From Lyngbya sp. HA4199-MV5 (GTDB lineage: Bacteria > Cyanobacteriota > Cyanobacteriia > Leptolyngbyales > Leptolyngbyaceae), in the NCBI GenBank assembly GCA_019359375.1, contig JAHHHL010000048.1, positions 1-45,618 of the forward strand: a stretch of DNA of 45,618 nucleotides. The letters run 5' to 3'. The notes below the pieces were generated by a model, which worked only from the letters and a program-made list of their open reading frames with translations, did not search any database and was not told the DNA's origin. Both the position numbers and the translations under genes were made by a program. How positions within the stretch are numbered: the first letter of the stretch is position 1; each line of letters opens with the position of its first letter. Below, piece by piece: positions 2,597-44,280 of this stretch.

Positions 2597-2698
2597 TGCA
2601 GGGCAGCAGAAAACGCTCGATCATCTTATCTTTCTCGCACAAAATTAATGTAGATTGAGGGCATCGCTGCTTCAGATCATTAAGTGTCGCCATCACGC

Positions 2699-4297
2699 AT
2701 GTCTGATCTTCCTGTCAATGCCCCATTGACTCAGCCAAAGACTGTAGAACCACGATCGCCGGACGAAGCACCGCGACGTATTTTCATTAGTTACAAGCGT
2801 GGGGTCGAGCCAGATGAACCGATCGCGCTGCATCTCTTTCACACGCTGAACCAGCACCATGCAGTCTTTATTGACCAGACGATGACGGTGGGTACGCGCT
2901 GGGCAGAGCGTATTGAAGCCGAGATCCGGCAGGCGGATTTTGTGATTATGGTACTCTCGGCGCAGTCGGTGCACAGTGAGATGGTGTTGGGAGAAATTGA
3001 GACGGCGCATCATCTGGCAAAGAAACAGAATGGTAAGCCAGTGCTGCTGCCTGTGCGGCTTGCTTATCGGGAGCCGTTTGTGTATCCGCTGAGTGCATAC
3101 TTGAATGGCATCAACTGGGCGTTTTGGGAAAACGCTGCTGATACGCCCCGGCTCTTGCAGGAATTGATGCAGGCGATCGCGGGGAACACCCTTTCGCTGA
3201 ATACTGAGGACTCGAAAGCAGATCTGCTCCAGCCAGCCGCGCCTGATGCGATGCCGCCACCGCTACCGTCTGCCCAGCTAGCGCCTCTGGAAATGCCTGA
3301 GGGGACGATGAACCCAGAGTCGCGGTTCTATGTGGAGCGTCCTACGGATGCGATCGCCCTCAGTACGATTCAGCAGAGGGGGAAGGGCGTAACCATTACC
3401 ATTAAGGGACCGCGCCAGATGGGCAAAAGCTCGCTGCTCGTAAGGACGATCGAAGCCGCTATCAATGCCGGAAAGCGGGTTGCCTTTCTGGATTTTCAAC
3501 TCTTCGACAAAACAGCATTGACCAATCCGGAGCCGTTCTTTCGGCAGTTTTGCGCCTGGTTGTCAGATGAGCTGGAGATGGACAGCCAGGTAGAGTCGTA
3601 TTGGGCAATGCCGCTGGGCAACAGTCAGCGCTGTACGCGCTATATGCAGCGGTATTTGTTGAAGGAACTGGGCAGTCCGCTGGTGCTGGCGATGGATGAG
3701 GTAGAGTCGGTCTTCGATACCGATTTTCGCTCAGACTTTTTTAGTATGCTGCGGAGCTGGCACAACAGCCGCGCCACATCACCTATTTGGCGGCAGCTTG
3801 ACCTGGCGCTGGTGACATCCACGGAACCCTACCAGTTGATTGAAAATCTGAACCAGTCGCCCTTTAATGTGGGGCTGGTGATTGACCTGACGGACTTTAC
3901 GCCTGACCAAATGACAACCCTGAACCAGCGGCACGGCTCCCCCTTCAACGCCGAGCAAGAACAACAACTCATGCGACTCCTGAATGGGCATCCCTATCTG
4001 GTGCGACGGGCGCTGTATCTGACTGCCAGTGAGCAAATGACGGTGGCAGAGTTGTTTGAGCAAGCGATCGACGATCGGGGTCCCTTTGGCGATCACCTGC
4101 GCTATCACCTGTTTCGGATGCACGACAAGAAAGCGTTGGTGCAGGGTTTTGTGCAGGTGATTAAGAACAATGTCTGCCAGGATGAGCAGGTGTTCTTTCG
4201 TCTACGCGGGGCAGGGCTGGTGCGGCGAGAGGGGCAGACGGTGTTGCCTCGGTGTCAATTGTATGCAGATTATTTTCGAGAGCACTTGAGGGGGTGA
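2699..4297 (+). CDS. TIR domain fused to AAA/STAND-like ATPase
   Basis: A 532-residue two-domain protein, started at the ATG at 2699; a GTG at 2684 would add five residues and neither has a clear ribosome site. Residues about 26-160 form a TIR domain: RRIFISYKRG at its start, then AVFIDQTMTVGTRWAERIEAEI, and LSAQSVHSEMVLGEIETAH, in which the Glu near residue 99 matches the catalytic Glu of NAD-cleaving TIR domains. A Pro-rich linker (DAMPPPLPSAQLAPLEMP) leads to an AAA_35-like ATPase (PF14516 type) at about 200-530, with Walker A GPRQMGKSS (237-245), Walker B LVLAMDEVE (328-336) and a conserved LNGHPYLVRRAL segment. TIR-STAND proteins in bacteria include antiphage and cell-death effectors that hydrolyse NAD; that role here is inference. 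The next gene on the same strand shares the ATPase domain, about 200 bp away, suggesting joint function or duplication. Confidence 0.88.
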   Translation: MSDLPVNAPLTQPKTVEPRSPDEAPRRIFISYKRGVEPDEPIALHLFHTLNQHHAVFIDQTMTVGTRWAERIEAEIRQADFVIMVLSAQSVHSEMVLGEIETAHHLAKKQNGKPVLLPVRLAYREPFVYPLSAYLNGINWAFWENAADTPRLLQELMQAIAGNTLSLNTEDSKADLLQPAAPDAMPPPLPSAQLAPLEMPEGTMNPESRFYVERPTDAIALSTIQQRGKGVTITIKGPRQMGKSSLLVRTIEAAINAGKRVAFLDFQLFDKTALTNPEPFFRQFCAWLSDELEMDSQVESYWAMPLGNSQRCTRYMQRYLLKELGSPLVLAMDEVESVFDTDFRSDFFSMLRSWHNSRATSPIWRQLDLALVTSTEPYQLIENLNQSPFNVGLVIDLTDFTPDQMTTLNQRHGSPFNAEQEQQLMRLLNGHPYLVRRALYLTASEQMTVAELFEQAIDDRGPFGDHLRYHLFRMHDKKALVQGFVQVIKNNVCQDEQVFFRLRGAGLVRREGQTVLPRCQLYADYFREHLRG

Positions 4298-4461: not shown

Positions 4462-4493
4462 AGCAATCGGTAGGCGTGGATGAGGAGAAAATG

Positions 4494-7400
4494 ATGACAG
4501 GCACAACCATCTATACGGTAGGCGGCACAGTGCAGGCGGGGGGTGGGGTGTATTTGCCCCGTCGCGCGGATGAGGAACTGTTGGCGCTGTGTCGATCGTC
4601 CACGTTTGCCTTTGTCCTCACGCCGCGCCAGATGGGGAAGTCGAGCCTGATGGTGCAGACGGCAGAAACGCTGGCAGAGGAGGGCATCCGCTCTGCCATT
4701 GTGGATTTGCAAGACCTGGGCGCACAGGTGACGGCAGAGCAGTGGTACTTTGGCTTTTTGGTGAAGCTGGAAGACCAACTGATGCTGGATACCGACGTGG
4801 TGAGCTGGTGGCGCGATCGCGAACATCTGGGTGTGTCCCAACGGTTAACGTCCTTTTTTGAAGCGGTGCTGCTGACGGAGATCCCAGACCCGATCGTGAT
4901 CTTTGTGGATGAGATTGACACCACCCTCAGCCTCGACTTCACCGACGATTTCTTCACCGCCATCCGGTATCTCTACCTCGCCCGTGCCCATAAACTCGTC
5001 TTTCAGCGGCTCTCCTTTGTGCTGGTGGGCGTTGCCACCCCCGGCGATCTCATCCACGACCCCAAGCGCACGCCCTTTAACATTGGGCAGCGGGTAGACC
5101 TGACCGACTTTACCCAGGCAGAAGCGCTGCCCTTGGCGGATGGCTTTGGGCTACCCGCAGATCAGGCAACCCAGGTGTTGGGCTGGGTGATGCAGTGGAC
5201 AGGCGGACACCCCTACCTGACGCAGCGCCTGTGTCGTGCCCTGGTGGATGTGGGGCAGTTGTATTGGACGAAAGAAGAGGTCGATCGCGTCGTTGGCAGC
5301 ACGTTCCTGGGTGCGATGTGTGAGCAGGACAGCAACATGCAGTTTGTGCGCGACATGCTGACGAAACGGGCAGATGATGTGTACGGCGTGTTGACCACCT
5401 ACCGCGAGGTGTGGCGCGGGCGACAACCCGTGCTGGATGAGGAGCAATCGCTCAATAAATCACACCTGAAGCTATCGGGCGTGGTGAAGCGAGCCGATGG
5501 AGCGCTGGTGGTGCGGAATCCTATCTACCGGGAGGTGTTTGATGATCAGTGGGTGAAAAGCCACCTGCCCGTCAACTGGAATAAGCGACTGCAACGGGCA
5601 GCGGTGATCTTAATTGGAGCAGTATTGGTTTCCTCGGTGCCTTTAGCCGTCTTTGGTTGGAGTCAAGCCATTGAGGCTGGTAAGCAACGTCTGCTTGCTG
5701 AAGACAACGCAAAGGTCGCTCGTTTGAGTGAACGGGTAGCGAAACGGCAGGCTGAACTAGCTCAAAAAAGCAAACAGGAGGCTGAAAAGAGCAGACAGGA
5801 AGCTGAAACACAAGCTCGATTAGCCAGACAACAGGAACGGATTGCTAAACAACAGACAATATTGGCTGAAAAAAGACGGCTACAGGCAGAAGCCGCACAA
5901 CAAACGGCTAATAAGCTGCGGCAGAAAGCAGAGATGGCTCGCAAGGCTGAAGCAGATCAGCGGGTAAAAGCGGTTGACGCTCAACGACTAGCTGAAAGAA
6001 GCAGGCAGGAGGCGATCTCTGCGAGAGCAATTATCGAGGCTCAGAAGGCAAACGTCGATCTTAATACCCGCAGTCTAGTCGCGGAAAAGCTCCTCGATTC
6101 AAATTTGGATCTTGAAGCACTAATAGAAATCTTGACGACAGAACGACGAATCAAGCAGTTAGGAAAACTTGTGAACGCAAACACTCAAATGCTAGCGACT
6201 GCCACACTACAGCAAGTTGTTTATGGAGTAAGTGAGCGTAATCGATTAAAAGGTCATAAAGGTCCTGTTTCTAGTGTCAGTTTCAGTCCTGATGGAAAGA
6301 CGATCGCTTCTGCTAGTCTTGATGGCACGGTGAAACTATGGGACCTAAAGGGGCAGGAACTTGAAACCCTCAAAGGGCATCAGGATTATGTTTCTAATGT
6401 TAGTTTCAGTCCCGATGGGAAGACGATCGCTTCTGCTAGTGGGGATGGTATGGTGAAGTTGTGGAACCTAAAGGGGCAGGAACTGAAAACCCTCAAAGGG
6501 CATGGCAGGAGTGTTCTCAGTGTTGCTTTCAGCCCAGATGGCAAGACAATCGCTTCCGCCAGTAATGATAAAATGGTGAAGCTGTGGAACCTAAAGGGGC
6601 AGGAACTTAAAAGCTTCAAAGGGCATAGCGATTCTGTTTTCAGTGTTAGTTTCAGCCCGGACGGAAAGATAATTGCCTCAGCCAGTGGTGACAAAACGGT
6701 GAAACTGTGGAATCTGGAGGGGCAGGAACTCAAAACCCTTAAAGGGCATAGCGATTCTGTTTTCGGTGTTAGTTTCAGCCCGGACGGAAAGACGATTGCT
6801 TCTGCTAGTGCGGATGGTACGGTGAAACTGTGGAATTTGGAGGGGCAGGAACTCAAAACTCTCAAAGGGCATAGCAGTAATGTTCTCAGTGTTAGTTTCA
6901 GCCCGGACGGAAAGACAATTGCCTCTGCTAGTGCCGATGGTACGGTGAAACTGTGGAACTTGGAGGGGCAGGAGCTCAAAACCATCAAAGGACATAGCAG
7001 TTATATTAACGGCGTTAGTTTCAGCCCGGACAAGAAGACGATTGCTTCTGCTAGCGCTGATGGTACGGTGAAACTGTGGAATTTGGAGGGGCAGGAACTC
7101 AAAACCCTTAAGGGGCATGAGAGTAGTGTCCTCAATGTCAATTTCAGCCTGGACGGAAAGACAATCGCTTCCGCCAGTGATGACAAAACGGTGAAACTGT
7201 GGAATCTGGAGGGGCAGGAACTCAAAACCCTTAAAGGGCATAGCGATTCTGTTTTCGGTGTTAGTTTCAGCCCGGACGGAAAGATAATTGCCTCAGCCAG
7301 TGGTGACAAAACGGTGAAACTGTGGAATCTGGAGGGGCAGGAACTCAAAACCCTTAAAGGGCATAGCGATTCTGTTTTCGGTGTTAGTTTCAGCCCGGAC

Positions 7401-8147
7401 GGAAAGACGATTGCTTCTGCTAGTGCGGATGGTACGGTGAAACTGTGGAATTTGGAGGGGCAGGAACTCAAAACTCTCAAAGGGCATAGCGATTCTGTTT
7501 TCAGTGTTAGTTTCAGCCCGGACGGAAAGATAATTGCCTCAGCTAGTGATGACAAAACGGTGAAACTGTGGAATCTGGAGGGGCAGGAACTCAAAACTCT
7601 CAAAGGGCATAGTAGCTCTATTAATGACGTTAGTTTTAGCTCGGACGGAAAGACGATTGCTTCTGCTAGCGCGGATGGTACGGTGAAACTGTGGAATTTG
7701 GAGGGGCAGGAACTCAAAACTCTCAAAGGGCATAGTAACGGGTTATTGGGTGTTGGTTTTAGCCCGGACGGAAAGACGATTGCTTCTGCTAGTGCGGATG
7801 GTACGGTGAAATTATGGAATTTGGAGGGGCAGGAACTCAAAACTCTCAAAGGGCATAATGGCTGGGTTAGACGCGTCAGATTTAGCCCAGATGGCAATAC
7901 CCTCGCCTCCGCTAGTGATGACAACACGGTGGCTCTCTGGAACCTGGATCTGGATGACTTGATGGCGCGTGGCTGCGATTGGCTGCACGACTATCTCACC
8001 ACCAACCCCAACGTCAGTGAGTCTGACCGTCATCTCTGCGACGGCGTTAGGCGAGTCAGGAAGGTCTCAGCCGTACCGGAACAGCAGGCGGAGGGGCAGT
8101 GGTTTGGGTGGGTGGCGAGGGAGTGGAGAAGGTTGATGAGGGTGTAG
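4494..8147 (+). CDS. AAA/STAND-like ATPase, membrane segment, coiled coil, 14 WD40 repeats
   Basis: A 1217-residue protein; the ATG at 4494 has GAGGAG six bases upstream (a second ATG is at 4491, a GTG at 4476). Domain order: AAA_35-like ATPase (PF14516 type) at about 1-360, with Walker A TPRQMGKSSL (43-52), Walker B IVIFVDEIDT (134-143) and WTGGHPYLTQRL; one transmembrane segment at about 368-388 (AAVILIGAVLVSSVPLAVFG); a long Lys/Gln/Glu/Ala-rich coiled coil at about 395-525; then 14 WD40 repeats of exactly 41 residues (about 585-1158), each of the pattern LKGHxxxVxxVSFSPDGKTIASASxDGTVKLWNLxGQELKT; and a basic tail ending EWRRLMRV. Fourteen blades fit two seven-bladed propellers. The family is common in filamentous cyanobacteria and is usually read as a signalling or NLR-like receptor; partner and trigger are unknown. 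The propeller side relative to the membrane cannot be told. Confidence 0.9.
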   Translation: MTGTTIYTVGGTVQAGGGVYLPRRADEELLALCRSSTFAFVLTPRQMGKSSLMVQTAETLAEEGIRSAIVDLQDLGAQVTAEQWYFGFLVKLEDQLMLDTDVVSWWRDREHLGVSQRLTSFFEAVLLTEIPDPIVIFVDEIDTTLSLDFTDDFFTAIRYLYLARAHKLVFQRLSFVLVGVATPGDLIHDPKRTPFNIGQRVDLTDFTQAEALPLADGFGLPADQATQVLGWVMQWTGGHPYLTQRLCRALVDVGQLYWTKEEVDRVVGSTFLGAMCEQDSNMQFVRDMLTKRADDVYGVLTTYREVWRGRQPVLDEEQSLNKSHLKLSGVVKRADGALVVRNPIYREVFDDQWVKSHLPVNWNKRLQRAAVILIGAVLVSSVPLAVFGWSQAIEAGKQRLLAEDNAKVARLSERVAKRQAELAQKSKQEAEKSRQEAETQARLARQQERIAKQQTILAEKRRLQAEAAQQTANKLRQKAEMARKAEADQRVKAVDAQRLAERSRQEAISARAIIEAQKANVDLNTRSLVAEKLLDSNLDLEALIEILTTERRIKQLGKLVNANTQMLATATLQQVVYGVSERNRLKGHKGPVSSVSFSPDGKTIASASLDGTVKLWDLKGQELETLKGHQDYVSNVSFSPDGKTIASASGDGMVKLWNLKGQELKTLKGHGRSVLSVAFSPDGKTIASASNDKMVKLWNLKGQELKSFKGHSDSVFSVSFSPDGKIIASASGDKTVKLWNLEGQELKTLKGHSDSVFGVSFSPDGKTIASASADGTVKLWNLEGQELKTLKGHSSNVLSVSFSPDGKTIASASADGTVKLWNLEGQELKTIKGHSSYINGVSFSPDKKTIASASADGTVKLWNLEGQELKTLKGHESSVLNVNFSLDGKTIASASDDKTVKLWNLEGQELKTLKGHSDSVFGVSFSPDGKIIASASGDKTVKLWNLEGQELKTLKGHSDSVFGVSFSPDGKTIASASADGTVKLWNLEGQELKTLKGHSDSVFSVSFSPDGKIIASASDDKTVKLWNLEGQELKTLKGHSSSINDVSFSSDGKTIASASADGTVKLWNLEGQELKTLKGHSNGLLGVGFSPDGKTIASASADGTVKLWNLEGQELKTLKGHNGWVRRVRFSPDGNTLASASDDNTVALWNLDLDDLMARGCDWLHDYLTTNPNVSESDRHLCDGVRRVRKVSAVPEQQAEGQWFGWVAREWRRLMRV
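6246..7967 (+). repeat. 14 tandem 123-bp repeats encoding WD40 blades
   Basis: Fourteen in-frame units of 123 bp start at 6246 and recur every 123 bases to the last unit at 7845. Similarity is at the DNA level, not only protein: bases 6643-6875 (233 nt, parts of units 4-6) are identical to 7258-7490 (units 9-11), exactly five units away, and units 5 and 10 agree at all 123 positions. Unit 14 and units 1-3 are the most divergent. The pattern shows recent internal duplication or gene conversion. The unusually regular codons also leave long open frames on the opposite strand, which are not genes. Confidence 0.95.
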
Positions 8148-8274: not shown

Positions 8275-9528
8275 CTATGCTTTTGTTTGCTTTGCTTCAA
8301 GATACTGCTTGGCGACAAGAGCATCATGGGTTAGCGATGCACCATAAAGCGGCATTGAAGGTAGGTCTAACAATTTGCCGCCTGCCGCGATGGTTAGCGG
8401 TTGCCCACGCCACTCAATGCGATCGCCCACAAAGCCATAGCACCACAGCCCGAACCGCACCAGATCGCTGAAGGGCACCAGCCACCAAAGCCTTTGAGCC
8501 ATTGGATCGTGTAAGACCTTCGTGCTCATCATCCATGCCATGAAGAGCCTGAATGCCAACGTGATAGCCGACACCCGCCAACTTAATGCTGAACCGTGGG
8601 ATAACAGCAAAAAGCTTGCGCTTGCTACCGTGCCAAAGGTAAAGATCTGACCCGCATAGCCCCAGGGTTGAGAAAAGCGAATGCCGCGATTCCACCGCGT
8701 TTGATGCTGTAAGAACTCCGTAAAGCGCGTCGTTGCTAACACGTGATCGACCACGTAGTGGGATAGCACAACTCGATAGCCCAAATGCGTTGGCATCCGT
8801 CCCAGGTGAAAATCATCGTGAAGGTAATTGGCAACAGCAGTAAAGCCCCCGATCGCTGCCAGCACTGATTTTTGCATCCCAATAGTGGCACCAATGCCAA
8901 ACGTCATGCCCGTTAACAGACGGGAAACTAAAACCGTTGGCACCAGTTCTGTCGTGATGCCCAGCGCCTCGAAAGCCGCGACCCAGCCTTGCGCTAACGA
9001 ACGGTAGGTACAGGTGATAACTCCCACGGTTGGGTCGCGTAAGGGTTGTACCACTTGCCTCACATAGTTGGCATCAACCTGAATGTCGCTATCGGCAATT
9101 AGCAAAAGGTCATGCTTCGCCTCTAAAAAGGCATTTGCCAGGTTGTTAATTTTGCGGTTCAGCCCAATGGCACGATCGCTCACCACAAGGCAAAGATCAG
9201 AGGCTGGAAAGTCACGGATCAGTTGCTTCACCACGCTGATCACTGGGTCAGTTGGATCTTGAACGCCAAAAATGATCTGGTAAGTTGGATAGTTCTGATG
9301 GCAGAAAGAGGCAAGATTTGCGTAGGTGTTGCGATCGAGTCCGCAAAGTGGTTTCAGGATGCTAACAGGCGGATGAAAATCAGGATTAGCCTCCGTCGGC
9401 TGAGCGAGAAAATCGATCGCGGCATACAGGACAAGACAGTCATAAACAATGGCGCTTAAACAAAAAAGCAACGGTAAAAACGGAGCGTAATCAGTGATTC
9501 GCTCCATCTGCTTCAAGGCTAATAACAC
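8275..9528 (-). CDS. hpnI: HpnI-like membrane glycosyltransferase (GT21/ceramide glucosyltransferase type)
   Basis: A 417-residue GT-A glycosyltransferase resembling hopanoid glycosyltransferase HpnI and ceramide glucosyltransferases. An N-terminal membrane segment (FLPLLFCLSAIVYDCLVLYAAI) is followed by PPVSILKPLCGLD, the ADSD metal/nucleotide motif (145-148), LHDDFHLG (237-244) and the QTRWNRGIR acceptor-site motif (from 276), then C-terminal membrane segments. HpnI adds N-acetylglucosamine to bacteriohopanetetrol at the membrane, and HpnK then deacetylates it. The start is a GTG at 9528 whose first base is the last base of the hpnK stop codon (TAGTG), which implies translational coupling; an ATG at 9507 is the alternative. 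A paralogue lies at 13708-14949. I use the symbol hpnI for this copy because it adjoins hpnK, but either copy could be the true HpnI. Confidence 0.8.
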   Translation of the reverse strand: MLLALKQMERITDYAPFLPLLFCLSAIVYDCLVLYAAIDFLAQPTEANPDFHPPVSILKPLCGLDRNTYANLASFCHQNYPTYQIIFGVQDPTDPVISVVKQLIRDFPASDLCLVVSDRAIGLNRKINNLANAFLEAKHDLLLIADSDIQVDANYVRQVVQPLRDPTVGVITCTYRSLAQGWVAAFEALGITTELVPTVLVSRLLTGMTFGIGATIGMQKSVLAAIGGFTAVANYLHDDFHLGRMPTHLGYRVVLSHYVVDHVLATTRFTEFLQHQTRWNRGIRFSQPWGYAGQIFTFGTVASASFLLLSHGSALSWRVSAITLAFRLFMAWMMSTKVLHDPMAQRLWWLVPFSDLVRFGLWCYGFVGDRIEWRGQPLTIAAGGKLLDLPSMPLYGASLTHDALVAKQYLEAKQTKA

Positions 9529-10409
9529 TAGCTGCCAATGGCTCCTAAATGGCGGTAATTCGTTAATTCAAAGCCCTGGTTGCGAATGACCGCACGAACC
9601 CGATCGCTCATGAGCGCATCGCATTCTGCCTGCCCTAACCCAAAGGCTTCATTGGCGGGTTCGCCGGGAATGGCAATGGCAGGATGGGCGTAAAGCTCCA
9701 CCCGATTGGCTTGAATTTGGGGAATAAGCTTCAGCAAGTAGTCTTCTGTCATGCGACCGCTGTGCAATACGCCATAAACACGATCGACCGATTGAATGCC
9801 GTGTGCCTGTAGCAATCGCTTTCCGTAAAGGCGCAGTCCTGCATAAACAAAGGACAATAGCTGTTTGATGACCCAATCTGAGGAATCGGCTTTCAGCGCG
9901 ATCGACGCTTCCTCGTAGGGCAGGCGAATGAACCGAATCTTGAAGGCATCTGCCAGGTGTACCAGGTGGTGCAGCACGACTGGCTGAGCGTGGACATGGA
10001 CATGACCATCCACATGAGAGAGCGGCAGCCCGGTTTGGCGAAACGTCTCTAACTGCGCTCGGATTTCAAGCGGCAGCTCGCGTCGGGCAGCACGGCTAAA
10101 CTGGTAATACAATCCCACGGCTTCTGGTTGACTCGAAAAATGACCTTGAGCATCCACCAGATGGGGAATTTGAGCTGGTGGTAGCACCGATCGCCCACAC
10201 GCCAGCACTAAGTGTAGTCCTACCGCCAGCGTCGGATGAGCTTTCGCCAGAGTCACAGCCTCCTCAAAGGCAGCACCTGTCACCATCAAACTGGTGCTGG
10301 TTAAGACTCCTCGTCGGTGCGCGTCAATAATGGCTCGATTAACGCCCGAAGAAAAGCCGAAATCATCTCCATTAATGATGAGCTGACGCTGCTGACGCTG
10401 TGCTTCCAT
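9528..10409 (-). CDS. hpnK: hopanoid biosynthesis deacetylase HpnK (YdjC family)
   Basis: A 293-residue YdjC/ChbG-like carbohydrate deacetylase (PF04794). Metal-site motifs are clear: GDDFG (14-18), His66 in AVGLHL, and HVDGHVHVH (132-140). The ATG at 10409 has AGGA six bases upstream. HpnK removes the acetyl group from the N-acetylglucosamine placed on bacteriohopanetetrol by HpnI. It overlaps the HpnI-like gene by one base and follows hpnJ on the same strand after a 600-bp gap filled with three small inverted-repeat elements, which probably split an older operon or add a promoter. YdjC proteins also act on chitooligosaccharides, but the neighbours favour the hopanoid role. Confidence 0.88.
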   Translation of the reverse strand: MEAQRQQRQLIINGDDFGFSSGVNRAIIDAHRRGVLTSTSLMVTGAAFEEAVTLAKAHPTLAVGLHLVLACGRSVLPPAQIPHLVDAQGHFSSQPEAVGLYYQFSRAARRELPLEIRAQLETFRQTGLPLSHVDGHVHVHAQPVVLHHLVHLADAFKIRFIRLPYEEASIALKADSSDWVIKQLLSFVYAGLRLYGKRLLQAHGIQSVDRVYGVLHSGRMTEDYLLKLIPQIQANRVELYAHPAIAIPGEPANEAFGLGQAECDALMSDRVRAVIRNQGFELTNYRHLGAIGS

Positions 10410-13537: not shown

Positions 13538-13705
13538 ATCAGAGGAAAGGATAAAGGATGAAGTATAAAGTCTAAAATTTTTAGCCTTTAGCCTTTAGCC
13601 TTTAGCCTTCTGCCTTCTGCCTCTGCCTTCTTTCTATCTAAGCGGTCAGCCGTCAGCTTTTTAGCCTTTAGCCTCCTGCCCTATGCCTCCTGCCTTCTGC
13701 CTTCC
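13538..13705. repeat. heptanucleotide array (STRR-like), intergenic
   Basis: Purine-rich units (AGGATAAAGGATGAAG) are followed by long pyrimidine-rich runs of 7-bp units: CCTTTAG repeated, then CCTTCTG, with CGTCAGC-type units in between. It fills the gap between the ferritin-like gene start and the 3' end of the upstream glycosyltransferase. It is one of about ten similar arrays in this window. Confidence 0.75.
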
Positions 13706-16865: not shown

Positions 16866-17156
16866 AGGAGACAGAGGAGTTATTAGTGGTTAGTTGTTAG
16901 CAGAAGGCAGAAGGCAGGGGGCAGAAGGCAGAAGGCAAGAGAGTTATGAGTTGATTGAGCGGTCAGCCGCCCCTGCGGGAAGCAAGCTACAGTCTCCAGT
17001 GATCAGTTTGCTGCTTCCAGCCTTCCCTCTTGCCGCACTCGTCCACTGGTAACTGTTTCATTGATCACTGACGACCGTTAAACCCTTTTATCCTTTATCC
17101 CTCTGCCTTCTGCCCTCTGCTTTCATCCCTTAGCCTTCATCCCTCATCCTTCTGCC
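16866..17156. repeat. heptanucleotide array between convergent dapL and ruvC
   Basis: About 290 bp of degenerate 7-bp units. The left part is purine-rich (repeated GGCAGAA), the right part pyrimidine-rich (CCTTCTG, CCCTCAT), so the two halves can pair. The middle holds GAGTTGATTGAGCGGTCAGC, shared with arrays near 19070, 20330 (inverted) and 44020. It may serve as a bidirectional terminator; no gene is present. Confidence 0.75.
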
Positions 17157-18961: not shown

Positions 18962-19197
18962 GGGGTAGGAGAGTGAGGGGTGAGGAGTGAGGGGCAGAAG
19001 AGTTGTTAGTTGTTGGTTGTTGGTTGTTAGAAAAAGGCAGAGGGCAGAAGGTAGGAGAGTTTTGAGTTTTGAGTTGATGGAGCGGTCAGCCGTCAGCCGT
19101 CAGCGGTCAGCTTTTTAGCCTACTGCTACATAGAAGCAAGCTATAGCCTTCTGCCTCCTGCCCTCTGCCTTCTGCCTTTTTTTAGCCTTCATCCCTC
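18962..19197 (+). repeat. 230-bp heptanucleotide element, copy A of an inverted pair
   Basis: It runs GGTGAGGAGTGAGGGGCAGA, then GTTGTTGGTTG units, AAAGGCAGAGGGCAGAAGG, GAGTTTTGAGTTGA, GCGGTCAGC units, a turn, then CCTTCTGCCTCCTGCCCTC and CCTTCATCCCTCATCC. The whole element reappears in reverse orientation at 20229-20450 with only scattered differences. The right end overlaps the last codons of the cupin gene. Confidence 0.85.
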
Positions 19198-20228: not shown

Positions 20229-20450
20229 AGCAGAGATGAAGGCTAAAAAAGGCAGAAGGCAGAAGGCAGAGGGCAGGAGGCAGAAGGCTATAGCTTGATT
20301 CTGCGGAGCAGTAGGCTAAAAAGTTGACCCCTGACCGCTCAATCAACTCAAAACTCAAAACTCTCCTACCTTCTGCCCTCTGCCTTTTTCTAACAACCAA
20401 CAACCAACAACTCTTCTGCCCCTCACTCCTCACCCTTCACTCCCCTCTCA
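20229..20450 (-). repeat. 230-bp heptanucleotide element, copy B of an inverted pair
   Basis: The reverse complement matches 18962-19197 almost throughout: GGTGAGGAGTGAGGGGCAGA, the AGAGTTGTTGGTTG units, AAAGGCAGAGGGCAGAAGG, GAGTTTTGAGTTGA and the CCTTCTGCCTCCTGCCCTC run are all shared in order. Differences are mainly a few unit counts and the turn sequence. It fills the lspA-bioY gap. Confidence 0.85.
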
Positions 20451-36719: not shown

Positions 36720-36880
36720 GAAAGGTAGAGGGCAGAGGGCAGAAGGGTGAGGGATGAAGGCTAAAGGCTAAAAAGCTAATAGCTGACTGCTTAGAGGTTA
36801 GAAAGCTGACTCCTGACTCCTGACTCCCCCTCTTCTCTAACAACCAACAACTAACAACTAACAACTCTTCCCCAAGCTGA
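36720..36880. repeat. heptanucleotide array between DUF1517 gene and ispF
   Basis: AGAGGGCAGAGGGCAGAAGG and GGCTAAAGGCTAAAAAG on the left, then CTGACTCCTGACTCCTGAC and AACAACTAACAACTAACAA on the right. It starts at the stop of the DUF1517 gene and ends about 45 bp before the ispF ATG. Same class as the other arrays. Confidence 0.75.
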
Positions 36881-41550: not shown

Positions 41551-43914
41551 TTATTGATCTAACTGACGTTCGATCGCGCGGTGCCAGCGATCGCCCATAT
41601 CGGCAAGCGTGACGTTAAGCAGCGAGATTGCATTCGTGCTGATCTGCAAAGACGATGTGGTTGCCGTGACGGTGCCGATCAGTTGCCAGTTTTTTGAAAG
41701 GTGCTGATTTAGGTAAGCTTCCCAATCGACCTGAGCAACAGGCGCGATCGATACAATTATTCGCGCACCACCTTCTGCAAAGAGCAGGTGATCGAACCGG
41801 GCAGTTGAAGCTGGAAGGTCGATCGTTGCCCCATGTTGTCCACTCAGGCAAGATTCTGCCAGCGCTACGGCTAAGCCACCTTCAGCACAGTCATGCGCCG
41901 ATCGCACCCAACCGTGACGAATGCCCTCACGACAGGCTGCCTGCACGCGGCGTTCCAGATCAAAGTTGATACCGGGAGGGATGCCTGCGATCGTGCTGTG
42001 AATGACTGCCAGGTAGTCTGAAGCGCCGAGGGTGAGGAGAGAGGAGAGAGGGGAGAGGGGAGAGTCGAATTCTGGAGGTTCTGTCGTTGCTCCGAGCAGG
42101 TAAATCAAATCGCCTTCTGATTGCCAGCCTTGACCGCAGATTTTGGTTAAGTCGGGAATTAAACCAACCATGCCGACAACGGGTGTGGGGTAAATGGGTT
42201 GGGGTTTGCCGTCTGCATCCAGGGTTTCGTTGTAGAGCGAGACGTTGCCACCTGTAACGGGCGTACTGAACTCCTTGCAGGCTTCGGCTAAACCACGGCA
42301 GGCTTCGGCAAGTTGCCAGTAGCCGATCGGCTTTTCGGGACTGCCAAAGTTCAAATTATCCGTCACCGCCAACGGTTCAGCGCCTACACAGCTTAAGTTT
42401 CGTGCTGCTTCTGCCACTGCTGCCTTGGCACCTTCATAGGGATGGAGGTAGACGTAGCGGGGATTGCAGTCAACGGTGGCGGCTACGCCGGGGAGGGTGT
42501 GGGGTGTGGGGTGTGGGGTGTGGGGTCGGACACGCACGATCGCGGCATCGGCACCACCGGGCAGCATCACCGTATTATTCTGCACCTGATGATCATACTG
42601 ACGGTAGACCCAACGTTTAGAGGCGATCGTGGGGCTTGCCAGCAGTCGCAGCAGAATGTCGTTCCAGGTGTGCTGCGTGCCCTGAATCTCGATACCTTCA
42701 GGCGTGCAGGATGGCAAGCTGTCGGAAGACCATGCCCAGGCTTGTTTGGCGTAGTCGGGTGGTTCGGCTAACAGTTCACGATGGTAGATGGGTGTGTTGT
42801 CAGAAAGTGCAGTGGCAAGGATTTCAGCCGCAACTTCGCCTTTAAACAGAATGCGAACGATCGGCTCCTCAATGACCGTACCTGCGACGACGGCATGAAG
42901 TCCCCAGCGCTCAAAGATGTCGATGAGTTCTTGTTCCCGTCCTTTATGGGCGACAAACAGCATGCGCTCCTGGGATTCGGAAAGCAGGTATTCGTAGGGC
43001 CCCATGCCACTTTCGCGCACGGGGATCAAATTCAGGTCAAATTCAATGCCCACGCCACCTTTCGCCGCCATTTCGGAGGTGGAGCAGGTAATGCCCGCTG
43101 CGCCCATATCTTGAGCGGCAACGACAGCGCCCGTTTTGAAGGCTTCCAGGCACGCCTCAATGAGGGATTTTTCTAAGAAGGGATCACCGACTTGTACTGC
43201 GGGTCGATCGTCCATTGAGGCATCGCTCAACTCGGCGCTGGCGAAGCTTGCACCGCCCATACCATCTCGTCCCGTTGTAGAACCGACATAAAGCACCGGG
43301 TTGCCGATGCCCTTTGCACCAGAGACAACGATTTCAGGTGTTTCCATTAAGCCCAGCGCCATCACGTTCACCAGCGGATTGTCGGAGTAGGCGCGATCGA
43401 AGTAAATTTCGCCGCCCACAGTGGGAACTCCGACACAGTTGCCGTAGTGAGCAATGCCAGAGACCACACCGCTAAATAAACGACGCGTCCGAGGGTTATC
43501 CAACGAACCGAAGCGGAGGGAATTCAGCAGTGCGATCGGGCGTGCCCCCATCGTAAAAATATCGCGCAGGATGCCGCCTACACCCGTCGCTGCACCTTGA
43601 AAGGGTTCCACAGCCGAAGGGTGGTTATGCGACTCGATTTTGAATGCCAGATGCAAGCCATTGCCTAAATCGACGACTCCAGCATTCTCACCAGGACCTA
43701 CAAGGATGCGATCGCCCTCTGTCGGGAACTGCTTCAGCAGCGGACGCGAGTTCTTGTAGCAGCAGTGTTCCGACCACATCACCCCAAACATACCCAACTC
43801 AGCCTTATTGGGGTGGCGACCCAGACGACGCACAATTTCTGCGTACTCCTCTGGCTTAATGCCCTCTGCGGCGATTTCTTCAGGAGAGAACGGGGCAGCG
43901 ATCGGAGCAGTCAT
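41551..43914 (-). CDS. purL: phosphoribosylformylglycinamidine synthase, small-PurL type
   Basis: A 787-residue synthetase subunit from the ATG at 43914 ([20 protein letters not shown]); the frame is open to 44049 only through a heptanucleotide array, which is not protein. [51 protein letters not shown] and [13 protein letters not shown] are typical. It works with PurS and PurQ, which are not in the window, to make FGAM. Two parts look foreign: HTPHPTPHT (about residues 465-475) and [10 protein letters not shown] (about 615-628), both encoded by repetitive 7-bp-like DNA, probably in-frame repeat insertions into surface loops. purF follows 180 bp downstream on the same strand. Confidence 0.95.
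42030..42064 (-). repeat. repeat-derived stretch within purL (second site)
   Basis: GGGTGAGGAGAGAGGAGAGA and AGGGGAGAGGGGAGAG (plus strand) read, on the coding strand, as [10 protein letters not shown] between EPPEFD and TLGASDYL. The motif is like the GGGAGTAGGGAG units of the intergenic arrays. The insertion is in frame. Confidence 0.65.
42490..42528 (-). repeat. repeat-derived stretch within purL (first site)
   Basis: GGGGAGGGTGTGGGGTGTGG and GGTGTGGGGTGTGGGGTC (plus strand, 7-bp unit GGGGTGT) read on the coding strand as HTPHPTPHT, between IVRVRP and [17 protein letters not shown]. Most PurL proteins would pass directly from one to the other. It is the same unit length as the intergenic arrays. 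Confidence 0.7.
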
Positions 43915-43964
43915 ACAAAGCACGCCGGGAGAACACGCTTTATTGTATCGGTATTTCAGCGTTG

Positions 43965-44280
43965 GGCGGGAGTGGGGAGTCGGGAGTGGGAGTCGGGAGT
44001 CGGGAGTCGGGAAGAGTTTTGAGTTGATTGAGCGGTCAGCGGTCAGCAATCAGCTTTTTAGCCTTTAGCTGTACTGATTCAAAACATTAACCGCGTAGGG
44101 TGCCGTTAGCGCCAGCGTAACGCGCCGCATATTAAGGCTAACCAGACGAGTTAATACATTAGCCTTTAGCCTTCCTCCCTTATCCCCCGCCCTTATGCCT
44201 TCTGCCCTCTGCCCTCTGCCTTCTGGCTCCTGACTCCTTCTAAAAACTAACAACTAAAAACCAACAACTTCTCCTGTCTC
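43965..44280. repeat. heptanucleotide array with a nested insert, upstream of purL
   Basis: The left part has GGGAGTCGGGAGTGGGAG and GAGTCGGGAGTCGGGAAG, then GAGTTTTGAGTTGATTGAGC shared with arrays at 16950, 19070 and 20330. The right part has CTTCTGCCCTCTGCCCTC and CAACTAAAAACCAACAAC. Between them, 44064-44160 contains GCGTAGGGTGCCGTTAGCGC and CAGCGTAACGCGCCGC, a different palindrome type that seems to have inserted into the array. It separates purL from the VOC gene. Confidence 0.7.

What the first reader, a model, noticed from the sequence alone, without database searches (positions are those of the whole stretch)
6246..7967. WD40 repeats that are nearly identical at the DNA level
Fourteen 123-bp units are exactly in register. 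Units 5 and 10 are identical over 123 of 123 bases, and a 233-nt block (6643-6875) is identical to 7258-7490, five units away. Such homogenised repeats show recent duplication or gene conversion, which in fungal WD40-NLRs is tied to diversification of recognition. Propeller loop positions (the residues after LKGH and before VSFS) vary most, as would be expected of a binding face.
Basis: partly seen in the sequence, partly recalled or inferred. Interest (0 to 1): 0.62.

Follow-up and report, generated by a model that had tools for sequence, protein, structure and literature searches.

The report
Cyanobacterial WRAP-type WD40 receptor array
A cyanobacterial gene carries fourteen head-to-tail copies of a small protein unit whose framework is kept constant while its likely binding surface varies; it belongs to an already described family of bacterial receptors thought to act in self-defence.

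Summary
The array is real: 14 in-register 123-bp WD40 units, 6246-7967, with one 233-nt block duplicated five units apart. 'Nearly identical' overstates it: median pairwise DNA identity of units 1-13 is 80%, 4 of 78 pairs reach 95%, synonymous difference 0.44. One patch was copied recently; the rest is older, kept alike by purifying selection.

The gene (AAA_35 ATPase, predicted membrane helix, linker, 14 blades, tail) follows a TIR-AAA_35 gene. This is the published WRAP operon; PDB 2YMU is the best match. Blades 1-13 are closest to blades of their own array, blade 14 to a relative's blade. The four most variable codons (7, 9, 25, 27) are those under positive selection in Podospora NLRs; for this array alone selection is not significant. 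At the same locus, two Stenomitos relatives have one blade or none. Low counts come from drafts; four finished records have 14, 14, 14 and 16.

New member of a known kind. Boldest open point: the propellers may lie outside the cytoplasm.

The parts
2684..4297 (+). Partner gene: TIR domain (residues 33-150) + AAA_35 ATPase (204-533); proposed effector
   Evidence: Pfam TIR_2 E 1.5e-20, AAA_35 E 7e-118
4476..8147 (+). WRAP-type receptor gene (GTG 4476, ATG 4491 or ATG 4494; stop at 8145-8147)
   Evidence: Open frame of 1223 aa
4527..5543 (+). AAA_35 ATPase domain with Walker-type motifs PRQMGKSS and VIFVDEID (motif names recalled)
   Evidence: Pfam AAA_35 E 6.3e-36, residues 12-350 of the 4494 start; motifs read
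5598..5654 (+). Predicted transmembrane helix (AAVILIGAVLVSSVPLAVF), positive flank on the ATPase side
   Evidence: Best 19-residue Kyte-Doolittle mean 2.52; net charge of the 15 residues before +4, after +1
5655..6215 (+). Charged K/E/Q-rich linker, probably coiled coil (no coiled-coil predictor was run)
   Evidence: Sequence; DNA identity to the G003 relative falls from 87-96% to 51-75% from window 5584 on
6216..6245 (+). Conserved first strand VVYGVSERNR before blade 1; inferred closing ('velcro') strand
   Evidence: Conserved in the 11-sequence consensus; PMC9218822 describes a conserved first strand in WRAP domains
6246..7967 (+). Array of 14 WD40 blades, 41 aa / 123 bp each
   Evidence: Pfam WD40 with 14 stretches
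6643..6875 (+). Copy 1 of the exact 233-nt duplicated block (blades 4-6)
7258..7490 (+). Copy 2 of the exact 233-nt duplicated block (blades 9-11)
7845..7967 (+). Terminal blade 14: diverged from the internal blades, closest to the single blade of the G003 relative (76% DNA)
7968..8144 (+). 59-aa C-terminal tail, kept in G003 (144 of 170 aligned nt) and as an out-of-frame remnant in G001

Best explanation
A WRAP-type ('WD40-family recently amplified propeller') receptor. The C-terminal 14-blade array folds as two seven-bladed WD40 propellers whose top faces bind an unknown ligand. Binding is passed through the linker and membrane helix to the AAA_35 ATPase. With the partner TIR-AAA_35 protein it switches on a TIR effector (probably NAD-consuming, leading to growth arrest or cell death in a defence response). 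Blades are copied, converted and deleted within the array, so each lineage carries its own internal blades while the terminal blade and tail are inherited vertically. Selection keeps the blade framework and varies mainly the four top-face codons 7, 9, 25 and 27. Shown: architecture, gene pair, sequence relation to 2YMU, intragenic kinship of blades 1-13, where the variation lies, loss of the array at the same locus in one relative and a single blade in another (a draft). Inferred: two rings, ligand binding, signalling order, TIR activity, defence role, membrane insertion.
For: Domains. 2YMU (WRAP of Nostoc punctiforme) is the best PDB sequence match, E 5.9e-239 against 1.2e-82 for the best match outside WRAP, its fragments and designed derivatives; Foldseek reports 68% identity over 577 alignment columns. 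An AAA_35 partner lies upstream in 63, and a TIR homologue in 59, of 68 relatives with 1.8 kb or more upstream (80 examined). L109 (Nostoc sp. CHAB 5824, 14 blades) comes from a strain whose WRAP protein is treated in PMC9218822. Internal blades nearest to their own array 13 of 13; blade 14 nearest to G003's blade. Next-longest match in the genome: 64% over 1.25 kb. The top four variable codons equal the four published for Podospora; over 17 arrays the overlap sums to 46 of 68 against 6.6 expected, and pN at these codons exceeds core pS in 16 of 17.
Against: No ligand, activity or phenotype was tested. dN/dS at the four codons is not significant for this array alone. The AlphaFold model (pLDDT 79.5, pTM 0.68) superposes poorly on 2YMU as a whole (TM 0.45, rmsd 29), so two separate rings are not shown by it. 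No PADLOC model describes the pair: the WD40 part hits HEAT-ARM_XIII (E 2.5e-49), the TIR part two Aga_TIR models (best E 5.3e-7) and PDC-S66 (E 8e-4). NCBIfam matches the TIR stretch to Thoeris ThcB4 at 27.9 bits, cut-off 220.
Confidence: 0.8

Rival explanations
1. The high local identity, or the number of units, is a short-read assembly artefact.
For: The genome is a draft of 95 contigs. Exact repeats up to 233 nt exceed common k-mer sizes. In 18 of 80 relatives the receptor ORF runs off the fetched stretch, 17 of them at a contig end by the ranges, and one (L121) has a run of N in the ORF, so such arrays do break assemblies.
Against: From k 127 on only one two-copy repeat remains, which should fix the linear order; an assembler could then mis-count only whole five-unit loops (inference). 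The count of 14 agrees with the commonest non-zero count in relatives and with three of four finished records. The 13 internal units comprise 12 different DNA sequences.
Confidence: 0.08
2. An ordinary WD40 scaffold without recognition or defence function; top-face variation is simply where any propeller tolerates change.
For: Top-face hotspot diversity is already reported for highly repetitive WD40 proteins in general (PMC5587647). dN/dS for this array alone includes 1. Several AAA_35 relatives carry other C-terminal domains.
Against: TIR-AAA_35 partner conserved. In all ten arrays with median blade identity of 0.80 or more, pN at the four codons (0.30-0.64) exceeds core synonymous difference (0.16-0.21), which plain tolerance would not give; these arrays are related, not ten independent tests. 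Sensor-half loss or divergence beside a well-kept ATPase.
Confidence: 0.15
3. The loops are diversified by targeted mutagenesis (a diversity-generating retroelement) rather than by selection plus intragenic exchange.
For: DGRs diversify putative sensors of conflict systems in multicellular cyanobacteria (PMC10907252, passages).
Against: Synonymous differences are spread through the conserved framework (pS 0.44), and the variable codons recur in every unit. The DGR machinery itself was not searched for.
Confidence: 0.02

Closest known systems
WRAP protein Npun_R6612 of Nostoc punctiforme (PDB 2YMU) and its operon
   Same: 14 WD40 blades at the C-terminus of a STAND ATPase protein whose gene is coupled to a TIR-STAND ATPase gene (PMC9218822 and PMC6805158, sections and passages)
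   Different: Blades here are older and more diverged (median 80% DNA identity; pS 0.44) than in Npun_R6612, reported with 10 point mutations and no synonymous ones. Pfam calls this ATPase AAA_35; the word transmembrane does not occur in PMC9218822
Podospora anserina NWD/HNWD NLRs (HET-D, HET-E, HET-R)
   Same: In-register WD40 array, intragenic exchange, the same four most variable codons 7, 9, 25, 27 (PMC1805685 and PMC2873952, passages)
   Different: There NACHT and HET domains in one fungal protein, with concerted evolution also between loci; here a bacterial AAA_35 protein with a predicted TM helix, a separate TIR partner, and no sign of recent exchange between loci
Highly repetitive prokaryotic WD40 proteins (PMC5587647)
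   Same: High internal identity, frequent 14-repeat (two-domain) forms, hotspot positions diverse (passages)
   Different: A general catalogue; its text holds no occurrence of 'TIR', 'AAA' or 'positive selection'

Membership tests
WRAP (recently amplified WD40 propeller) operon | C-terminal array of highly similar WD40 blades, typically 14 | tested here: met
   14 units, median protein identity 78%; above the 60% cut-off of PMC9218822
WRAP (recently amplified WD40 propeller) operon | N-terminal STAND-type ATPase in the same protein | tested here: met
   AAA_35, E 6.3e-36, Walker-type motifs; that AAA_35 is the STAND domain meant in the papers is an inference from homology with 14-blade Nostoc loci
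WRAP (recently amplified WD40 propeller) operon | Adjacent gene for a second ATPase with an N-terminal TIR domain | tested here: met
   2684-4297; conserved in relatives. Co-transcription not tested
WRAP (recently amplified WD40 propeller) operon | Blades amplified independently of those in relatives | tested here: met
   13 of 13 internal units nearest within own array; blade 14 is the exception
WRAP (recently amplified WD40 propeller) operon | 14 blades fold as two seven-bladed propellers | tested here: inconclusive
   Sequence match to 2YMU, but the AlphaFold model did not superpose globally (TM 0.45)
Fungal WD40-NLR (NWD family) | NACHT domain | tested here: not met
   The part before the array matches AAA_35; no NACHT match at E 0.001
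Fungal WD40-NLR (NWD family) | Diversifying selection at WD40 codons 7, 9, 25, 27 | tested here: inconclusive
   Same four codons most variable, but dN/dS 1.50 with interval 0.89-2.51 for this array
Fungal WD40-NLR (NWD family) | Exchange of repeats between family members | tested here: not met
   Next-longest match in the genome 64% over 1.25 kb; nearest units of blades 1-13 all intragenic, own-genome arrays fetched included
Fungal WD40-NLR (NWD family) | Control of recognition specificity by the repeats | not testable with these tools
   Needs genetics or binding assays

The most novel reading that the evidence does not exclude
The receptor spans the membrane: the ATPase and TIR partner are cytoplasmic while the two diversified propellers face the periplasm, so the system senses envelope-bound or external non-self (a phage adsorbing, a neighbouring cell) and signals inward. 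It has independently arrived at the same four-codon variable surface as fungal allorecognition NLRs, and relatives exchange the whole outer sensor (WD40 array, CHASE2 or nothing) on a fixed inner module.
Probability: 0.35. Interest if true: 0.62.

Novelty: new member of a known kind. Interest (0 to 1): 0.36.

Why it matters
It gives a locus-level snapshot of how a bacterial NLR-like sensor is rebuilt. At one position in related cyanobacteria the ATPase part is 80-96% identical in DNA, while the sensor half is a 14-blade array, a single blade (in a draft), or missing with only its tail left. That makes the proposed arms-race turnover of WRAP genes testable in one genus. The match between bacterial and fungal variable codons is a concrete, checkable case of convergence on the same binding surface.

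Tried and rejected
Fungal reading rejected: the gene lies in a genome whose named relatives are Stenomitos, and the ATPase is AAA_35.

Five-unit segmental duplication (units 3-7 to 8-12): in pairs 3/8, 4/9, 5/10 and 7/12 the second is the best partner of the first, and 5 rare bases are shared only by 7 and 12. But the shift-5 excess has P 0.018 uncorrected and 0.14 after correction over shifts. Kept as suggestive only.

Array-level dN/dS above 1: not significant for this array.

AlphaFold proof of 7+7: failed, poor global superposition.

G003 single blade as a chimera of first and last blade: its second half fits unit 14 best (53 of 63); its first half fits units 5 and 10 (42 of 60) marginally better than units 14 (41) and 1 (40), so no clear junction.

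Hotspot overlap in a less selective set: the 12 arrays give 4,1,3,3,2,2,1,2,3,0,2,2 of 4 (window first, then falling internal identity), mixed and lower than in the window. The G005 array (L042/L133) is not among the 17 rows.

Blade counts depend on an HMM made from the window's own units or from those plus relatives and can be off by one. The loci were chosen partly by ORF length near that of a 14-blade gene, so their frequent 14 is not independent evidence.

Plasmid collection: no match at megablast sensitivity. PDB search of the ATPase part: none at E 0.01.

One search used a 10-base placeholder as second sequence by mistake and was not used.
Full report
What was checked. The window gene 4476-8147 (+) is open for 1223 codons. 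From 6246 to 7967 it holds 14 units of exactly 123 bp (Tandem Repeats Finder period 123). Units 5 and 10 are identical, and 6643-6875 equals 7258-7490 over 233 nt at an offset of five units. Shuffling bases among units 1-13 within each column gives a longest in-register run of 41.7 on average and 59 at most in 300 shuffles, so the block is a genuine recent copy (or, if the assembly erred, an assembly product). The headline is too strong: median DNA identity among units 1-13 is 80%, 4 of 78 pairs reach 95%, mean synonymous difference is 0.44 per site and nonsynonymous 0.125. Most units are older copies kept alike in protein by purifying selection (dN/dS 0.21 overall, 0.06 outside nine variable columns).

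What the gene is. Residues 12-350 (of the 4494 start) are AAA_35 (E 6.3e-36). A hydrophobic segment follows (19-residue mean 2.52), then a charged linker, 14 WD40 blades and a 59-aa tail. The gene upstream, 2684-4297, is TIR + AAA_35. This matches the operon described for WRAP: a STAND ATPase carrying 14 WD40 blades, coupled to a STAND ATPase with an N-terminal TIR domain, conserved in other cyanobacteria (PMC9218822, passages; the original report, Dunin-Horkawicz 2014, was not available and not read). The best PDB match is WRAP itself, 2YMU, E 5.9e-239; the next hits are designed or truncated WRAP derivatives, and the best outside that group is 1.2e-82. Of 80 named relatives of the ATPase (the scan matched more and kept the best 80), 68 have 1.8 kb or more upstream; 63 of these have the AAA_35 partner and 59 a TIR homologue.

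The organism. The window is contig C30 of a 6.9-Mb draft in 95 contigs. So the source is probably a Stenomitos-group cyanobacterium; this is an inference, as the window itself is unnamed.

Comparison between relatives. G003, G001 and the window share the TIR gene upstream and hpnI/hpnK-like sequence downstream (hpnI and hpnK named for the window), so they are positional equivalents. DNA identity to the window in the ATPase coding part (4484-5584, bins of 100) is 87-96% for G003 and 80-95% for G001, then drops sharply at 5584, just at the membrane helix. Beyond it, G003 has a linker at 51-75% identity and one blade plus the tail. G001 has about 220 nt without a blastn match to the window (it still encodes a hydrophobic segment), a stop codon, and the tail DNA as an out-of-frame remnant (L041:5878-6076). 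This is not easily explained as a collapsed repeat, because different sequence stands in its place. The single blade in G003 could be, since it is from a MAG. G005 (same genus) has the gene pair with 14 blades of another type at 43-residue spacing, and G007 (same family) has 12; a shared position was not shown for these two (in one search only the gene pair, and for G007 the array, matched).

Blade numbers. In 80 relatives, 18 ORFs run off the fetched stretch (17 at a contig end by the ranges; L147 for another reason). The other 62 have 0 (20), 1 (3), 2 (2), 3 (1), 4 (2), 5 (2), 6 (2), 7 (2), 10 (1), 11 (4), 12 (3), 13 (2), 14 (12), 15 (1) and 16 (5) blades. One of the three singles (L121) has a run of N in its ORF; the other two (L143, L152) are from MAGs. 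The four records titled complete or nearly complete (L122, L126, L128, L171) have 14, 16, 14 and 14. One more distant AAA_35 gene was fetched from each of six family genomes with contigs over 5 Mb; they have 14, 14, 14, 14, 13 and 0, but these were chosen partly by ORF length. Copy number does not look free: 14, as expected for two seven-bladed rings, dominates where the assembly can be trusted, on few records.

Origin of the blades. Among 653 units from 92 ORFs (window included; G003's blade entered twice), each of the 13 internal window blades is closest to another blade of the same array (81-100% DNA against at most 78% elsewhere), while blade 14 is closest to the single blade of G003 (76%) and only 67% to its own array. 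In the rest of the genome the longest match is 64% over 1.25 kb; short matches reach 83% over 41 nt. So recent exchange is intragenic, and the terminal blade looks vertically inherited. This fits published independent amplification of WRAP arrays. A five-unit duplication is suggested but not significant after correction.

Where the variation is. Per codon, the highest nonsynonymous diversities in units 1-13 are columns 27, 7, 25 and 9 (0.61, 0.58, 0.52, 0.51). In Podospora, codons 7, 9, 25 and 27 of 69 NWD WD40 repeats are reported as strongly positively selected and on top of the propeller (PMC1805685, passages). The registers appear to agree: in both, the codon between each pair (8 and 26) is constrained; here 26 is an invariant Asp and 8 is V, I or L. 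By chance the top four of 41 columns would coincide with probability 1e-5. In 17 bacterial arrays with median blade identity of 0.7 or more, the overlap with these four sums to 46 of 68, against 6.6 expected and 16 at most in 5000 random draws; pN at the four exceeds core pS in 16 of 17 (L148 is the exception). These arrays are related, so they are not 17 independent tests, and columns 6, 38, 35 and 10 are also often variable. In the 12 arrays the overlap is mixed. For the window array alone, dN(four)/dS(rest) is 1.50 with a bootstrap interval of 0.89-2.51: suggestive only. PMC5587647 had already noted diverse hotspot positions in highly repetitive WD40 proteins, so the principle is not new. 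The codon-for-codon match with the fungal genes did not appear in the passages and listings I saw (searches).

Membrane and sensor swapping. A segment with hydropathy of 1.6 or more follows AAA_35 in 48 of 59 WD40-bearing proteins (window included) and in 11 of 18 without WD40; the rest of the 81 were dropped as too short. Mean net charge is +1.7 before and 0 after it in the WD40 forms with the segment, which by the positive-inside rule (recalled) places the C-terminus outside. Of the 20 zero-blade relatives I scanned 7: three (L112, L120, L131) carry CHASE2, an extracytoplasmic sensor domain (localisation recalled); one a kinase, one a CHAT domain, one TPR and PD40 repeats, one nothing besides ATPase hits. 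The kinase form lacks the segment (L149, 0.67) and the CHAT form is below the cut-off (L172, 1.52). Against the reading: seven WD40 forms (L126, L137, L144, L145, L160, L161, L179) score 0.82 or less, so at least some propellers of this kind are probably cytoplasmic, and hydropathy is not a topology assay.

Assembly risk. Exact repeats of 104 nt and 233 nt exceed small k-mers; from k 127 to 231 only the 233-nt pair remains, and none at 235. That should leave one linear order and doubt only about whole five-unit loops (inference). The count of 14 makes a mis-count unlikely but does not exclude one.

Structure. AlphaFold2 on 11 aligned arrays gave pLDDT 79.5 and pTM 0.68. Foldseek ranks 2YMU first, but with TM 0.45 and rmsd 29, so the model does not show two clean rings; repeat symmetry is a known difficulty (PMC9218822).

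Papers. PMC9218822: outline, sections 14 (first part), 17 and 18, and passages. PMC6805158: outline, introduction and passages. Passages only: PMC1805685, PMC4986451, PMC6344855, PMC5587647, PMC2873952, PMC7159879, PMC10907252. Others were seen only in search listings.

Verdict. A genuine, moderately old WD40 array with a recent internal copy, in a WRAP operon. New member of a known kind; the comparison within Stenomitos and the fungal codon match add value, and the membrane-facing reading is the most interesting open point.

Noticed in passing
L112:6941-9442, L120:6956-9424, L131:2442-4871: WRAP-type AAA_35 ATPases whose C-terminal sensor is CHASE2 instead of WD40, beside the same TIR-AAA_35 partner: interchangeable sensors on one signalling module.
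   Followed up: partly
L041:5654-6076: In S. frigidus ULC18 the array and most of the linker are replaced by about 220 nt without a blastn match to the window, ending in a stop, and the C-terminal tail survives out of frame.
   Followed up: yes
L143 and L152: Two MAG-derived genes with a single WD40 blade followed by the normal tail: a contracted array or an assembly collapse.
   Followed up: partly
window 8275-10409 (-): hpnI and hpnK hopanoid genes directly downstream; G003 and G001 have two further minus-strand open frames of 485-553 codons between the receptor gene and these.
   Followed up: no
L149:6851-9019: An AAA_35 protein of an Anaerolineales MAG with a C-terminal protein kinase and no membrane segment, downstream of a TIR-AAA_35 gene.
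   Followed up: no
window 13580-13704, 16900-16937, 19146-19178, 20249-20288, 36837-36866, 42495-42526, 43967-44012: Several 7-bp tandem repeats (GCCTTCT, GCAGAAG, CGGGAGT and others); the first four lie between the ORFs listed, the last two inside the ORF 41551-44049.
   Followed up: no
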